A stretch of DNA of 39,158 nt from Nitrososphaeraceae archaeon (GTDB taxonomy: Archaea > Thermoproteota > Nitrososphaeria > Nitrososphaerales > Nitrososphaeraceae). Below are positions 5,119-17,393 of this stretch, piece by piece. Position numbers and translations under genes: made by a program. The notes below the pieces were generated by a model that had not been told where the DNA came from, searched no databases, and saw only the letters and a program-made list of their open reading frames with translations. Within the stretch, counting starts at the first letter, position 1; each line of letters opens with the position of its first letter. Where the stretch lies: assembly GCA_019246625.1 (NCBI GenBank), contig JAFAQB010000189.1, positions 1 to 39,158 on the forward strand. Reading direction: 5' to 3'.

Positions 5119-5289
5119 ATTAGGGATTAAGTTTTTTGAAGAATATCTATTTAAACGTATAACTAGGCTCTTAAGCAAATTTCATAGTATGACCTAAAGC
5201 TGAGAATACCTAATAGGTTCATTGTGATGAATATTATGAAGCGCCTTAGGATAAATCATCCATACATAATAGCATATGTCTTTACTTAT

Positions 5290-5880
5290 ATTTTAACTCA
5301 AGAAGTTATAGGTTTGCGAGCAAATCCTTAGAGCCAATTATAAAAGAACATTTATGTATTAATTTATTTGGAAAGCGATACGGAAATATTCAATAATATT
5401 ATTATCAGATAGATTTGTAATAATAATAGGAAAGCGAAAGGTCCAGAAGATATTTGTTGATGATGAAACGCTGCTTAAGATAAATGGACAAGATTTTTGT
5501 TGGTTATGGTTATTAGCTTACGAACCAAATTTGCATGTATGTTTGCTATTCCATTTGTCAACAAGAGAAAGAACTATCTTTGTCTGCTATCAGTTTTTCA
5601 AACAGATACGAACAAAATTTGGAAATAAACCAATCTTTACTACTGATGGAGCTCATTGGTATAATAATGATGATTGCAGATGATGGTTAAGGCTCAAGCA
5701 TATTGTCTATAGAACTGAGCTAAAGAATATTATTGAGAGGTTCATTCATTTAGCATATCAAAGATAGAACTGAATGTTTTTTTGATGATCATAAATAACT
5801 TTCCATATAAAAGCTATGAATGTGATGATAGAAAACATATCTGCAATTGGTTGAGATGTGTATTTTATATCTACATATGA
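5290..5880 (+). pseudogene. Decayed IS6-like DDE transposase
   Basis: One frame (codons in phase with 5456) gives FVDDETLLKING, FTTDGAHWYNN and NIIERF, matching the three acidic regions of an IS6-type DDE transposase: D at 5462, D at 5645, E at 5735. In-frame stops occur (TGA at 5681, TAG at 5765). A shift near 5758 moves to the frame reading KDRTECFFDDH, another conserved block of these enzymes, and a second shift leads to HICNWLR near 5838. Upstream, FIWKAIRKYS near 5365 resembles the helix-turn-helix part. The gene is dead by several independent lesions. I did not find terminal inverted repeats by eye. It marks an old insertion between tfb and the zincin gene. Confidence 0.8.
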
Positions 5881-5958
5881 AAACAGACAGACTTAGATTC
5901 CTCAATTTTGTAATTGCGAATAGCTTAAGTTAGCAGAACCATAACTAGTAGTAAATCT

Positions 5959-12072: not shown

Positions 12073-12189
12073 TGCATCATATAGGTTTAAAGATAAAGAC
12101 TGATAAATAAGTTAACGTGTTTTTATTGATATTTGTGGAAAATATGCATAATGACAGATTCGTAGAGAATTATTGCAAGCAGTATTGAA

Positions 12190-12388
12190 TCAAGCTGTGT
12201 AATAATATTCTAATGGTATGATCACCCTAAGATTTCCTTTTTCAAAAGGATTCCCAGCGTCATAGATGCCATTGTCATGCCATTAAATCCCTCAGGAGAT
12301 CTCATTTTTTAGTGGCTGGGTTTTAGATAGTAGTTACAATTCTGACCCTATCTTCTAGAGCAGATCGAGTCATCTTATGGTTGGACAT
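12190..12388 (-). pseudogene. Decayed small gene
   Basis: From an ATG at 12388 the frame gives MSNHKMTRSALEDRVRIVTT, then a TAA, then NPATKK. A shift at an A6 run (about 12308-12314) leads to RSPEGFNGMTMASMTLGILL and then KKEIL. A further shift gives VIIPLEYYYTA and a TGA at 12190-12192. Each piece has normal protein composition while the alternative frames do not. Read together the piece resembles a small helical DNA-binding-type domain, but I do not recognise it. At least one nonsense and two frameshift lesions are needed. Confidence 0.4.
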
Positions 12389-12540
12389 TACTTAGGGGAT
12401 TGTTAAGGATAATGTATATGTTGGGTAAGGATAATATAAGATATTCGCTATGATACTAGCGGATAGTACTGCATAACGAAGGATAGTGGTTAATAGTGGA
12501 AAAACCACGCTCAGGCGATCAGGTCATTATGGGTATTGTA

Positions 12541-12870
12541 TTACCATGCCAAAATTTTCAGTTTCTCATCTAGAAAAGCTTTTTTACTCATATGCTTGCC
12601 GAGCTTGACATTGATGGCATCATGTAAGCCGTTTATGAAATAGGACAATCTTTGCGGCATTCATCGCAGTGCAGAACATAACATGGTCTCAAAATCCATC
12701 CAAGCAAGCTCTTCTTCCACTCATAGCAGGTTCTGAATGATGTTGGCAGATACGGAATAGAAAAATACGGAAAGGGAAAATTGCAATGGCCCTGTGGTAT
12801 CCAGACTGGCGAAACACCGGGACTTATGTTGGGTTTAGCTGGTATAGGCCATTTTTATCTTCGGCTGCAT
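12541..12870 (-). pseudogene. Cysteine-rich gene broken by two frameshifts
   Basis: From an ATG at 12870 (MQPKIK) a shift in an A5 run near 12853 enters a long frame. It reads through WIPQGHCNFPFPYFSIPYLP, SFRTCYEWKKSLLGWILRPC and VLHCDECRKDCP. A second shift near 12640-12645 enters YFINGLHDAINVKLGKH, then KKAFLDEKLKILAW and a TAA at 12541-12543. The reconstructed product is about 109 residues with a cluster of cysteines (HCDECRKDC) that could bind zinc or an iron-sulfur centre. The second part of the long frame is uninterrupted for more than 60 codons, which makes chance unlikely. The family is not recognised. The lesions imply loss of function unless recoding occurs. Confidence 0.6.
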
Positions 12871-13151
12871 GACACGAAATATTCGTCTAGCCTTAATCTG
12901 CCTTAATCATGTTATATACTGATAGGCATTGAAAGCATATGCGTGCTGGGAAGAATGTCAAGAATTTGAGTAACAACTAGAAAGCTAAATTTGTTAATGG
13001 TATACTAGCATTAAAAACAAAACAAACCCGGGATTGTTGAGTACGAGCGCGCTAAACTAAAATACCTTGGCTATACCCCAAAGCAGGAATTGAGGCTGGA
13101 CTTTAGTTTCATAGTTCTAATACTATAGCCATCAAAGGTCGTTGATAGTAG

Positions 13152-14348
13152 CTACCAAGGAACTGTGACAGTATCACTCGGGTTTTTCGACGGCGTACCA
13201 TCGAACGGCACAAGGAAATAGTCGCTGGTGAGGGTCTTCTTTTTATTATCGATGCTGATACGAAGAAATCCGGGCTCCTGGTCGTTATAAGCCATCAATC
13301 TCAGATCCGGGCGGGTTGTTTGATAGCCCGGAGGCAATTGCTGCCCGCTTTCGTCTAATTCAATCTTGTGAAGCAGATTATAGGTGTTGGCATATCCTCC
13401 TGCTCCAGCGACGATATAAGGCAAACCCTTTTTCGTTTCCACCTTTCGTTCAAAGCGTTGGTAAGAGTGCACATGTCCTGACAGCACGATTGTGGGTACT
13501 CGTCCTGTATTTTGTATGACCCGGTCCAACGCAATTCCGATGTCCGGGTAGCCTCCATGAGCTTTATCAAGAGAGTAAGGAGGATGATGAACTGCGACGA
13601 TTAGAGCCTTATCTACAGGAGCGACTCGAACCTGCTGCTCGAACCATTGTAGTTGCTCGCTGGTCCCTCTAGCGTCAAGTGTGCCGTCCACATTTGAATA
13701 CAATCCTACGACGGTTGCAAATGGTGTATTGAGCGTCCAGTACACGTAAGGTTGCGTCATGGTTGGACGGTAAGGGCTTTCATGCTTGCTCGTTGTATCA
13801 CAAAAGTTCCGCGTGAAACCATATAGCGAAGGCTCGGTGTCCACAGGATCTCCCGGACGAACATGTGTGTCACCATCATGATTGCCTGGAATAGCAAAGA
13901 TTGAAGCATGATAATTTTGGTATGGTTCGTAAAACTGACTATTATATAGGGAGATCTCGCCATTAAAGTATACAACATCTCCTAGGTTGTAATAAAACGC
14001 CGGCACTAGTTTCTCGTGATGCTTGGTATCTGAAATCTGTTGATCCATTGCATCTGAAATTGCTCGTTCTACATCGTCGCCATGGATGCCTCCGGTATCA
14101 CCCACTGCGTGAAAGACAAGAGAGTCTGTGTCTACTGCAGCCTTTGCTTCCTCAGGCAGTATTAAATCCAAATCAAGACTCAAGTTTACGAGGTTGGTGG
14201 ACGGCGGCGAAATGAACCGTGGATATGGTTTAGGAGGTGATACTGGATCCCCCTGGGGGCGTTTGGCCTTGCCCGGTTTCTGACGCCCTTGGTCGTGGCC
14301 AATATGCGGGTGTATTGGTGTTGTCCTTAGAACATTAGAATGAATCAT
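13152..14348 (-). CDS. Calcineurin-like (purple acid phosphatase type) metallophosphoesterase
   Basis: The protein (about 398 residues) carries the metallophosphoesterase motifs in order, numbered from the ATG at 14369: D91 in VGDTGG, D131 in NLGDVVYF, GNHD at 162-165, HH at 261-262 in VAVHHPPY, and GHVH at 298-301. These bind two metal ions and hydrolyse phosphoesters. The N-terminal 60 residues are basic and Pro-rich with no clear signal peptide. The ATG at 14348 is preferred over 14369: TATA-like CTTATAAG (14371-14378) is centred 26 bases before it. The gene is G+C-richer (about 43-47% in two lines counted) than its neighbours and lies alone amid decayed genes, which suggests acquisition by transfer. 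Substrate is unknown. Confidence 0.88.
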   Translation of the reverse strand: MIHSNVLRTTPIHPHIGHDQGRQKPGKAKRPQGDPVSPPKPYPRFISPPSTNLVNLSLDLDLILPEEAKAAVDTDSLVFHAVGDTGGIHGDDVERAISDAMDQQISDTKHHEKLVPAFYYNLGDVVYFNGEISLYNSQFYEPYQNYHASIFAIPGNHDGDTHVRPGDPVDTEPSLYGFTRNFCDTTSKHESPYRPTMTQPYVYWTLNTPFATVVGLYSNVDGTLDARGTSEQLQWFEQQVRVAPVDKALIVAVHHPPYSLDKAHGGYPDIGIALDRVIQNTGRVPTIVLSGHVHSYQRFERKVETKKGLPYIVAGAGGYANTYNLLHKIELDESGQQLPPGYQTTRPDLRLMAYNDQEPGFLRISIDNKKKTLTSDYFLVPFDGTPSKNPSDTVTVPW

Positions 14349-14370
14349 GCCAAAAAACACTACAAACATA

Positions 14371-14378
14371 CTTATAAG
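14371..14378 (-). promoter_or_regulatory. TATA box of the phosphatase gene
   Basis: CTTATAAG on the minus strand, centred 26 bases before the ATG at 14348. This is the spacing expected for a leaderless archaeal transcript, and it decides the start codon against the ATG at 14369. Confidence 0.6.
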
Positions 14379-14623
14379 AAGTTCTCAAATGATACCTACA
14401 ATTGTAGAGAATTTATGAAATTGGCATTATTTGATTACGATTTTTTATGATAGTATGATAACAAATATGCTACCGTACATTTAATGTCATTATACATCGG
14501 CCATGCGTTGCCCGACTATTATAGCTTGAGATTTTGGCCCGGATCACAAGGAAGCTGCAAATTGATTCTGTTTTCTGACCAAATACGTCAATTTTCTTTG
14601 TTTTTTGCTGCTGTTACTGTTCG

Positions 14624-14810
14624 ATGATCAGATCCTGTGGGTGTGATACTATTTCACTTATAATTCCTCCTCGCTCCTCAAGCCATGATTGGGGTTCTTA
14701 GAATTTGTAATGGCTGTCCCATAGCTCACATATAGACCGTATGATGACCGAACAAGTTATCTATTCTTATATGACCGTCGTATTAGGTTATGATAATTTT
14801 CGGTGATCAT
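14624..14810 (-). pseudogene. Decayed small gene
   Basis: Starting at an ATG at 14810, three frames give consecutive protein-like pieces: MITENYHN, then YDGHIRIDNLFGHHTVYM, then SYGTAITNSKNP, then QSWLEERGGIISEIVSHPQD and LIIEQ with a TAA at 14624-14626. One shift falls at a C4 run (NP/QS junction), a typical slippage site. The joined product would be about 62 residues, soluble and mildly acidic. After the stop the frame stays open for a further 40 codons. The family is not recognised. Confidence 0.4.
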
Positions 14811-14953
14811 GATGCAATATAACCGTCCCATCAACTCTAGAGTTCAAACTAATGCTAATTACAACTGCATTTATCAATAGAAAAGAAGGAATAGAAAGTT
14901 CTCAGACATCTTACAATTTCATATAGAAGTGCATATGTCACCTGCCTGCTTGG

Positions 14954-15180
14954 CTAGTTTTTTGGCTTGGGTATTGTTATATTTAGATTGTCTTCTCGAG
15001 ACAATGTATTGTCATGATCTGGGTCTATGTCAGGTAGTGCACCTTTTGGTTTATTAATTTGTGCAAGAGCTGTTTTCGCTCGTCGGCTATGGGTAGCAAT
15101 TGAACCAGTAGATAGGATATTTCTCGAAATATGCTATCAGTAGAAGTAAGAAGGTGCTTAGCTGAACGATTGTTTATTCA
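14954..15180 (-). pseudogene. Decayed small gene with intact acidic C-terminal half
   Basis: One frame runs from about 15120 to a TAG at 14954-14956 and reads NILSTGSIATHSRRAK, then TALAQINKPKGALPDIDPDH, then DNTLSREDNLNITIPKPKN, about 57 codons of convincing protein. Just upstream it meets stops, and the neighbouring frame continues with NRSAKHLLTSTDS, so a shift near 15115-15120 has split the gene. No ATG is found in the upstream frame within reach. The composition (Ser/Thr, Asp, Pro) suits a surface or secreted protein. The family is not recognised. Confidence 0.5.
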
Positions 15181-15412
15181 TGAATTATCAACAATGTATG
15201 ATATGTATGATACATACATCAAATATCTTGCAAGAAAGCCAATCCAACATATTGGTCGCCAATTTGCCAATTCGAGATAAACAAGAAGACATAAAAACAA
15301 ATGGAGAATGCTGTTTTTTAATCATGTTATTGGTTTACGCAGTGAAGCTACAGTACAAGAGAGAAGCTCCATAGTTAAGAAGAAGAAGACTGCAAAGTAT
15401 GTACACTAAAAA

Positions 15413-15724
15413 TTAGTTATGAAATACTATTACAGACCAAGTGGTTGGTGTAGCAGGAAGGGTTACTTCAGCATTATTGCGTACCAGAAACCTTACCTTG
15501 CCATCCAAGGTAATACCTGCTTAAAAAGACATTGCATCAAACAGGCCATTATTTGGGGTTGCAACTACATTGTCGCCAGCTGCTGTTCCTGGAACAGAGC
15601 AATCTGCAAGTCCATCAGCATGAGGGTTGACTGAACCAAAATTAATATTGCATGTAGCAAAAATGAGCTTGCTAGCAAAAAAGCTAATGGCTGTCAAAAC
15701 AACGGGAATTGCTGCTTTAATCAT
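15413..15724 (-). pseudogene. Secreted protein gene interrupted by one in-frame TAA
   Basis: An ATG at 15724 starts a protein with a signal peptide (basic MIK, hydrophobic AAIPVVLTAISFFASKLIFA, then TC). The mature part includes INFGSVNPHADGLADCSVPG and NNGLFDAMSF. A TAA at 15521-15523 ends the frame, yet the same frame continues as AGITLDGKVRFLVRNNAEV and PATPTTWSVIVFHN to a proper TAA at 15413-15415. Unlike its neighbours this gene shows no frameshift: a single nonsense codon divides it. The full product would be about 103 residues. The two cysteines on either side of the mature start could pair in an exported beta-rich protein. The truncated 67-residue form may still be made. Confidence 0.65.
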
Positions 15725-15734
15725 ATTATTGTAA

Positions 15735-16163
15735 TTGACAACCTTTATAGCCCCTCCTTTATCTCTTGTACAAATTCCGTTGGTAACAGGTGAAACCAGG
15801 GAAGAATATGGATATCAGGAAAAAGCTTTAGATAAGCACGGTTTCCTCATGGAATTGCAATAGATTGCAACTTAATTTGAAAACCGAGGGTTCATGTGCT
15901 ATACCCAGTATCACAACAGCCAGATGTACCAAAAGCTACATCACAATGATCTTCTACCATTGATGTAAACCGCAATGGATATGATTATGATCTAGGAAGT
16001 AATAAATCCGGAAGAGGTATTGAATACGATAGGAACTTAACGGAAACAGACCACCTGAATATTGCATAAATGAAGGCTGGGAAAGAAAAAGAACACCATC
16101 AACAAAACAACCGAAATAATGTGGATGAAGTTGACAACGCTCATCATGTCCTATTGGCATAAC
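15735..16163 (+). pseudogene. Possible decayed gene, several frames
   Basis: A frame from 15735 to a TAG at 15867-15869 reads SLVQIPLVTGETREEYGYQ and KALDKHGFLMELQ. Further on another frame reads IDVNRNGYDYDLGSNKSGR and GIEYDRNLTETDHLNIA, then a TAA, then KAGKEKEHHQQNNRNNVDE, ending at 16161-16163. The composition is protein-like, but the pieces need several lesions to join and no start is evident. I regard it as probable decay rather than a live gene. Confidence 0.25.
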
Positions 16164-16599: not shown

Positions 16600-17061
16600 A
16601 TGTACAAAAAAACAATTTTGTCCACGACTTTAGGATTTTTCATTATGCAATTTTTGTTCCCATATATTCAAGGACAATCGCAAATACACAATTATAGAAC
16701 TATTATAATATTTACTGGTCCAATTCGATTGAGTGTTGGACAGAGCTATTGGACAAGACTTCATATTCCTCAGAACGCTACAAGCGCATATTTGAAAGGC
16801 TATGTTAGCTCATCTGGAAGCATAGTTAATACTGTGACTCTGAAATTATATGAGGCAGAAAAATGTCCACCTCCTGACTTAAAAGGTTATATAGACTTTA
16901 ATAAATGCAGTCCACCTCTGTTATCAGGCGACTATTTGCAAGCAGAACAAATTCTAAAATATATTAGTCATGCTGGGAACTTTTATCTGGTTTTTAAAAA
17001 TAATTCTCCACTATTTGACAAGACTATATCTGGAAATCTCCGAATAGAATACTTGGGATAA
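16600..17061 (+). CDS. Secreted beta-rich protein of unknown function
   Basis: The 153-residue product has a signal peptide: MYKKT, a hydrophobic core to about residue 22, then IQGQSQ as the likely cleavage region. The mature part is rich in Tyr, Ser and beta-branched residues. Its order resembles a jelly-roll or C2-like beta-sandwich: SVGQSYWTRLHIP, YLKGYVSSSG, TVTLKLYEAEKC, then GNFYLVFKNNSP and GNLRIEYLG. Segments such as FYLVFKNN and a preceding 'tail' are typical of domains that decorate exported or surface proteins. Two cysteines near 88 and 103 (KCPPPD and NKCSPP) could form a disulfide. It is probably anchored or free outside the cell. Family not recognised. Confidence 0.7.
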   Translation: MYKKTILSTTLGFFIMQFLFPYIQGQSQIHNYRTIIIFTGPIRLSVGQSYWTRLHIPQNATSAYLKGYVSSSGSIVNTVTLKLYEAEKCPPPDLKGYIDFNKCSPPLLSGDYLQAEQILKYISHAGNFYLVFKNNSPLFDKTISGNLRIEYLG

Positions 17062-17231
17062 ATAACGATTATAAAGAGGTGGTCTGGCACGCAATGATTT
17101 ATTGTTTCTTTTATGAGTGTTAAAACAGAATTCTGTCTTACACCTTAGACAGCAGATCTGCACGACCTTACTCTATATAGAAAATAAAAACATGATATAA
17201 AATAAAAATATGAAACAATACATTATTTATG

Positions 17232-17393
17232 ATGATGGTAAGTTGGAGCTATATTGTTATCTGTAATAATTGTGGGTACATATCTAATGAAAAGTTATCA
17301 AAGGAAATGGCAAAGAAACTTTCATTAACGCACTTGAATAGAGACCGCAACTGTACTCGTGGGCATATTAAATTGATGAAAGTAAGAACATAA
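17232..17393 (+). CDS. Small zinc-ribbon-like protein, 53 residues
   Basis: ATG at 17232, TAA at 17391-17393. The product has CNNCG at residues 11-15 and NCTRGHIKL at 40-48, so C11, C14, C41 and H45 could bind one zinc ion. A helix (EKLSKEMAKKLSLTHL) lies between the pairs. AT-rich DNA with a TATA-like GATATAAAATA at about 17194-17204 lies roughly 33 bases upstream. The composition is much more protein-like than the hydrophobic minus-strand frame that overlaps it (17325-17621). Function unknown; protein or nucleic-acid binding is the usual role of such modules. Confidence 0.5.
   Translation: MMVSWSYIVICNNCGYISNEKLSKEMAKKLSLTHLNRDRNCTRGHIKLMKVRT

What the first reader, a model, noticed from the sequence alone, without database searches (positions are those of the whole stretch)
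12190..16163. Cluster of broken small genes around one intact, GC-richer phosphatase
From 12.2 to 16.2 kb I can reconstruct at least four, possibly six, small genes broken by one to three frameshifts or nonsense codons, almost all on the minus strand. In the middle the 398-residue phosphatase is intact, has its own TATA box, and is richer in G+C than the surroundings. The pattern suggests a decaying accessory island with one recently acquired or still-selected cargo gene. Frame joins are by eye.
Basis: partly seen in the sequence, partly recalled or inferred. Interest (0 to 1): 0.75.

Follow-up and report, generated by a model that had tools for sequence, protein, structure and literature searches.

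The report
Imported phosphatase among decayed archaeal genes
A soil ammonia-oxidiser-like archaeon carries a working phosphatase gene that descends from bacteria, sitting in a stretch littered with the remains of dead native genes; this is a clear but ordinary case of gene import beside gene decay, in a genome where such dead stretches are common.

Summary
An intact 398-aa phosphatase (13152-14348, minus; GC 0.48, GC3 0.45 against roughly 0.3 in most neighbours) lies between two long stretches without genes (1,079 and 2,230 bp). Four remnant loci derived from five genes are proved by matches to intact relatives: (i) head and tail of a two-gene pair intact on own contig C383, about 2.2 kb deleted; (ii) a LanC-domain C-terminal scrap (plus strand); (iii) a small Cys/His protein, motif destroyed; (iv) a small protein with one nonsense codon. 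Most are truncations, not genes with one to three frameshifts. About 1.5 kb stays unexplained. The phosphatase has the purple-acid-phosphatase fold and all seven metal ligands, is under purifying selection, and falls inside a bacterial clade (Acidobacteriota, Verrucomicrobiota); a single archaeal clade is rejected (p-AU 1e-62). "Recently acquired island" is not supported: synonymous sites are near saturation, the remnants are native families with paralogues in this genome, no integrase, repeats or tRNA were found, and gaps of at least 1 kb occur about 6 times per 100 kb in this genome. Best reading: an older interdomain transfer, kept by selection, in a generally decaying, gene-sparse archaeal genome.

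The parts
13152..14348 (-). Intact calcineurin-like / purple-acid-phosphatase-type metallophosphatase, 398 aa (ORF extends to an upstream ATG at 14369, 405 aa)
   Evidence: PF00149 E 2e-9; phmmer to human PAP5 6e-8; model pLDDT 83, Foldseek best hits pig/human purple acid phosphatase E about 1e-14; ligands D84, D124, Y127, N156, H254, H292, H294 conserved
14370..14378 (-). TATA-like box CTTATAAGT of the phosphatase, about 26 nt before ATG 14348 (suggests a leaderless transcript)
   Evidence: read from sequence; function inferred
12166..12268 (-). Remnant: 3' tail of a gene whose intact paralogue is the 232-aa ORF L027:3883-4581 (own contig C383)
   Evidence: 78% over 82 bp, E 5e-11; alignment
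12289..12569 (-). Remnant: upstream region and first ~35-40 codons of a gene whose intact paralogue is the 595-aa coiled-coil ORF L027:4598-6385; rest deleted, joined to the tail at 12166-12268
   Evidence: 69% over ~311 bp, E 3e-24; alignment; the upstream part is also repeated at own contigs C293 and C270
12742..12894 (+). Remnant: last ~50 residues of a LanC-domain (HopA1-LanC fusion) protein
   Evidence: 65% aa to L030:5210-5362, the C-terminus of an intact 797-aa protein; DNA E 3.9e-8; Pfam LANC_like at its C-terminal positions 309-344/350, below cut-off
14553..14647 (-). Remnant: fragment of a small Cys/His-rich protein family (motif IDVFGQ.TEPIC.Y..C.HKFSLHG) with in-frame stop and Cys/His motif lost
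   Evidence: 90% over 62 bp to own C440 (E 1e-16) and 77% to own C157; intact relatives L032:3203-3622 and L218:1297-1686
15416..15724 (-). Remnant: small protein with signal-peptide-like N-terminus, broken by a TAA at 15521-15523; N-terminal ~70 residues of the intact relative are not alignable
   Evidence: 78% DNA over 252 bp, E 6e-52; 64% aa to intact 154-aa ORF L034:3931-4395
15725..15822 (-). Region upstream of that remnant, also repeated elsewhere in the genome
   Evidence: 74-76% to own contig C87
10789..12072 (-). Left boundary: intact 427-aa membrane protein (no Pfam match), found in 17 of 61 genomes of the family
16600..17061 (+). Right boundary: intact 153-aa protein, rare (40% match in G034)

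Best explanation
The locus is a patch of ordinary gene decay in a gene-sparse thaumarchaeal genome. A purple-acid-phosphatase-type enzyme gene of bacterial descent settled in or beside it and has been kept by selection. The enzyme most likely hydrolyses phosphate esters (or a related phosphorylated substrate) with a two-metal centre held by D84, D124, Y127, N156, H254, H292 and H294, inside the cell because no signal peptide is seen, from its own TATA-driven and probably leaderless promoter. The flanking remnants are dead copies of native lineage-specific genes whose paralogues survive elsewhere in the same or related genomes; they did not come in with the phosphatase. Shown: the remnants, the predicted fold and metal ligands, bacterial ancestry, purifying selection, genome-wide low coding density. 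Inferred: substrate, location in the cell, promoter use, and that decay and import are separate events.
For: Phosphatase: PF00149; AlphaFold model with best PDB hits pig and human purple acid phosphatase; ligands conserved in 18 homologues. Ancestry: nearest rows Nitrosocosmicus 77-78%, Acidobacteriota MAG 69-72%, Spartobacteria 55-56%, Terracidiphilus 47-49%; tree with starred 3-row and 7-row clades separate from the archaeal group; one archaeal clade rejected, lnL -83, p-AU 7.5e-63. Only 4 of 61 relatives and 8 of 398 phylum genomes have any match; apart from the window, the full-length matches are at about 40-44%. Selection: dN 0.15, dS 2.0 against the Nitrosocosmicus copy; third-position identity 50%, second-position 88%. 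GC3 of window copy 0.45, between 0.58 (Acidobacteriota) and 0.24 (Nitrosocosmicus). Remnants. Decay is general: gaps in 232 kb of the same genome and a decayed copy at 5179-5958.
Against: The flanks hold the longest (2,230 bp) and third-longest (1,079 bp) gaps of the window, so some local cause cannot be excluded. About 1.5 kb of the flanks is unassigned and could hide passenger genes. The contig is from a MAG (3% contamination); a chimera is unlikely but was not tested with reads. Direction of transfer rests on few close bacterial sequences, and the branch order among window, Nitrosocosmicus and the Acidobacteriota copy is not resolved (p-AU 0.34 and 0.13).
Confidence: 0.8

Rival explanations
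1. A decaying genomic island or integrated element brought the phosphatase and the now-broken genes together; only the phosphatase is still selected.
For: Remnants lie on both sides of one intact foreign gene; homologues of the phosphatase family occur on some bacterial plasmids at 33-37% and one at the end of a viral contig (48%).
Against: The remnants are native families with paralogues in the same genome (C383, C440, C157) or the same family (G002, G010) and none is bacterial. No integrase, tRNA, terminal or flanking direct repeats. Such gene-poor patches are common in this genome.
Confidence: 0.12
2. The phosphatase is an assembly chimera or contaminant of bacterial DNA in the archaeal bin.
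For: GC is higher than the flanks; the closest non-archaeal relative is an Acidobacteriota MAG from soil.
Against: A Nitrosocosmicus contig carries a 77-78% homologue; GC3 is intermediate and not bacterial-like; a TATA-like box stands at the expected distance; archaeal remnants flank it on both sides within a few hundred bp.
Confidence: 0.04
3. The phosphatase is an old archaeal gene, lost in most lineages.
For: About 40% homologues exist in a few genomes of the same family and in two genomes of another family of the order.
Against: Most of those form a separate starred clade; a single archaeal clade is rejected with p-AU about 1e-62, and Nitrosocosmicus LS_FP_2_bin.144 has one gene of each kind side by side.
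Confidence: 0.03

Closest known systems
Purple acid phosphatase, mammalian type 5 (tartrate-resistant; PDB 1ute, 1war, 2bq8)
   Same: Fold (Foldseek E about 1e-14 to 7e-14) and all seven metal-ligand positions, including the GDxxY tyrosine
   Different: About 19-20% identity; no signal peptide seen, whereas known animal and plant enzymes are secreted or lysosomal (own knowledge); metals and substrate untested
Metallophosphatase of Acidobacteriota MAG Inc-BW-C-12-M_MAG18 (L006)
   Same: 69-72% identity over nearly the full length, same N-terminal extension
   Different: Bacterial gene context on a 314-kb contig; GC 0.55
Metallophosphatase of Ca. Nitrosocosmicus sp. LS_FP_2_bin.144 (L007:7974-9173)
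   Same: 77-78% identity, archaeal host
   Different: Other locus: beside a ~40% paralogue and near CHAD and CYTH genes; GC 0.39
Gene remnants of genome decay (pseudogene patches)
   Same: Truncation, internal deletion and nonsense codons in non-selected paralogues
   Different: Nothing special; here they flank a transferred gene

Membership tests
Purple acid phosphatase (calcineurin-like metallophosphatases) | Calcineurin-like phosphoesterase domain and PAP fold | tested here: met
   PF00149 38.6 bits against cut-off 21.5; model pTM 0.87, best PDB hits all purple acid phosphatases
Purple acid phosphatase (calcineurin-like metallophosphatases) | Seven metal ligands (D, D-x-x-Y, N, H, H-x-H) with the iron-binding tyrosine | tested here: met
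   D84, D124, Y127, N156, H254, H292, H294 invariant or nearly so in 18 homologues; register as in the alignment to 1war
Purple acid phosphatase (calcineurin-like metallophosphatases) | Fe(III)-M(II) centre, purple colour, acid pH optimum | not testable with these tools
   needs purified enzyme
Purple acid phosphatase (calcineurin-like metallophosphatases) | Secretion signal, usual in eukaryotic members (not strictly defining) | tested here: not met
   N-terminus MIHSNVLRTTPIHPHIGHDQ has no hydrophobic stretch (read from sequence; no signal-peptide program run); so 'PAP-like', not 'secreted PAP'
Genomic island / integrated mobile element | Integrase or transposase, tRNA target, terminal or flanking repeats | tested here: not met
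   none in ORFs, tRNA scan, repeat search or Pfam of six-frame translations
Genomic island / integrated mobile element | Empty site in a close relative | tested here: inconclusive
   gene order around the locus is not conserved in any held relative

The most novel reading that the evidence does not exclude
This phosphatase subfamily is a mobile gene that moves between soil Acidobacteriota, Verrucomicrobiota and ammonia-oxidising archaea, perhaps with viruses (a 48% homologue sits at the end of a viral contig), and serves a phosphate or polyphosphate module in the archaea (neighbours CHAD and CYTH in Nitrosocosmicus; a distant homologue beside pst-phoU genes in another genome).
Probability: 0.1. 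Interest if true: 0.4.

Novelty: new member of a known kind. Interest (0 to 1): 0.25.

Why it matters
It is a clean, checkable example of bacteria-to-archaea gene transfer for phosphate chemistry in a soil ammonia-oxidiser lineage, and it shows that long gene-poor gaps in these genomes hold identifiable dead genes. Neither point changes current thinking; interdomain gene import into these archaea is well known (own knowledge).

Tried and rejected
Synteny with g11 genomes (G010, G024, G030, G036), with genomes holding the left-flank gene, and with ten genomes at the RFC-large-subunit locus: only single genes matched, no conserved order, so the empty-site test failed for lack of relatives. Pfam on six-frame translations with stops masked gave only a weak LANC_like hit. 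A joint search of 1,700 residues of unassigned stop-free segments in 61 genomes added relatives only for pieces already known, for the 153-aa right-boundary gene and for an unrelated small ORF at 17.2 kb. Promoter and terminator scans did not exceed shuffles; Rfam gave nothing. Search of annotated phages gave nothing. YN00 failed, so only NG86 dN/dS is given. Paper searches for this gene in Nitrosocosmicus or for decay in these genomes brought nothing to the point.

Full report
Where it lies. The window is the whole of contig C286 (39,158 bp) of a 3.96-Mb, 461-contig MAG, 96.8% complete and 3.0% contaminated. Its genes (replication factor C large subunit, transcription factor B and others) are archaeal. 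No other genome of its genus turned up among the relatives searched.

The phosphatase. ORF 13152-14369 (minus) encodes 405 aa, or 398 aa from the second ATG at 14348. CTTATAAGT at 14370-14378 lies about 26 nt before the second ATG, the spacing of an archaeal TATA box with a leaderless transcript, so 398 aa is the likelier product (sequence; inference). Pfam gives Metallophos (2e-9) and phmmer gives human purple acid phosphatase (6e-8). An AlphaFold model from 18 homologues (pLDDT 83, pTM 0.87) has pig and human type-5 purple acid phosphatase as its best PDB matches (E about 1e-14). The metal ligands D84, D124, Y127, N156, H254, H292 and H294 are conserved. No signal peptide is apparent by eye.

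Its origin. Closest relatives are a Ca. Nitrosocosmicus MAG (77-78%), an Acidobacteriota MAG (69-72%), two Spartobacteria MAGs (55-56%) and Terracidiphilus (47-49%). Matches are rare in relatives (4 of 61 genomes including the window's own) and in the phylum (8 of 398, only three of them full-length and one of those the window). In Acidobacteriota 75 of 396 genomes match, 15 of them at full length. In a 30-row tree the window joins Nitrosocosmicus and the Acidobacteriota copy inside a bacterial clade (starred), apart from a starred clade of archaeal paralogues. Holding all archaeal rows of the two neighbouring clades together costs 83 log units (p-AU 7.5e-63). The order within the three-row clade is not resolved (p-AU 0.34 and 0.13), so one or two transfers remain possible. 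GC3 is 0.45 in the window copy, 0.58 in the Acidobacteriota copy and 0.24 in the Nitrosocosmicus copy: partly adapted. dN/dS against Nitrosocosmicus is about 0.07, with dS near saturation: selected, and not recent.

The broken genes. (1) 12289-12569 (minus) matches the upstream region and first codons of a 595-aa coiled-coil gene intact on own contig C383, and about 12166-12268 matches the 3' end of the 232-aa gene next to it there. Order and strand are kept; about 2.2 kb in between is gone. (2) About 12742-12894 (plus) is the last ~50 residues of a LanC-domain protein; the intact relative in G010 is a 797-aa HopA1-LanC fusion. (3) 14553-14647 (minus) is a piece of a small Cys/His family intact at own C157 and in G030; the window copy has a stop and has lost the Cys/His motif. 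(4) 15416-15724 (minus) is 64% identical to an intact 154-aa protein of G002, with a TAA at 15521-15523; its upstream DNA is repeated at own contig C87. The segments 12570-12740, 12895-13151, 14.72-15.41 kb and 15.83-16.59 kb gave no relatives.

Is it an island? I found no integrase, tRNA, element ends or flanking direct repeats. The remnants are native families, not bacterial ones. Low gene content is general: open frames of at least 100 aa cover 57% of the window and 62% of 232 kb of other contigs, and gaps of at least 1 kb occur about six times per 100 kb. Another spacer, 5179-5958, is a decayed copy 65% identical to another own contig. The Nitrosocosmicus homologue lies elsewhere, beside a paralogue and near CHAD and CYTH genes. 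Gene order near this locus is not conserved in relatives, so an insertion cannot be shown directly.

Conclusion. A transferred, selected, PAP-like phosphatase stands in a patch of ordinary gene decay. Membership in the PAP fold family is well supported; substrate, metals and cellular role are not tested. The finding is real, partly misdescribed, and of modest interest.

Noticed in passing
window 17229-17390 (+): Intact 54-aa ORF (MMMVSWSYIVICNNCGYISNEKL...CTRGHIKLMKVRT), Cys-rich, conserved at 42-71% in at least 13 genomes of the family; too short for usual gene lists and without a Pfam match.
   Followed up: partly
L030:1962-5380 (genome G010): APH-like kinase gene followed by a 797-aa HopA1-LanC fusion: the kinase, lyase-like and cyclase parts of class V lanthipeptide synthesis (PMC9486802 for class V), here in an archaeon; no precursor peptide was sought.
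   Followed up: no
window 5179-5958: Decayed copy of a sequence that is also decayed at own contig C90 (L235:1507-2210, 65% over 732 bp); the readable stretch (FVDDETLLKINGQDFCWLW) resembles a DDE transposase, from memory only.
   Followed up: partly
L197 (IMGVR_UViG_3300044832_000035, contig end): A viral contig ends in a 48% homologue of the phosphatase followed by phage-like ORFs; may be a virus-borne copy or host DNA at a provirus edge.
   Followed up: no
L039:143-6458 (G019): A distant (~34-39%) homologue lies just after genes that read as pstC, pstA, pstB, phoU and a PhoU-like regulator, suggesting a phosphate-uptake role for that relative.
   Followed up: no
window 12392-12569 and own contigs C383, C293, C270: An upstream region repeated at several places in the genome (67-71%), in front of an intact gene only at C383; possibly the remains of a multicopy gene family.
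   Followed up: partly
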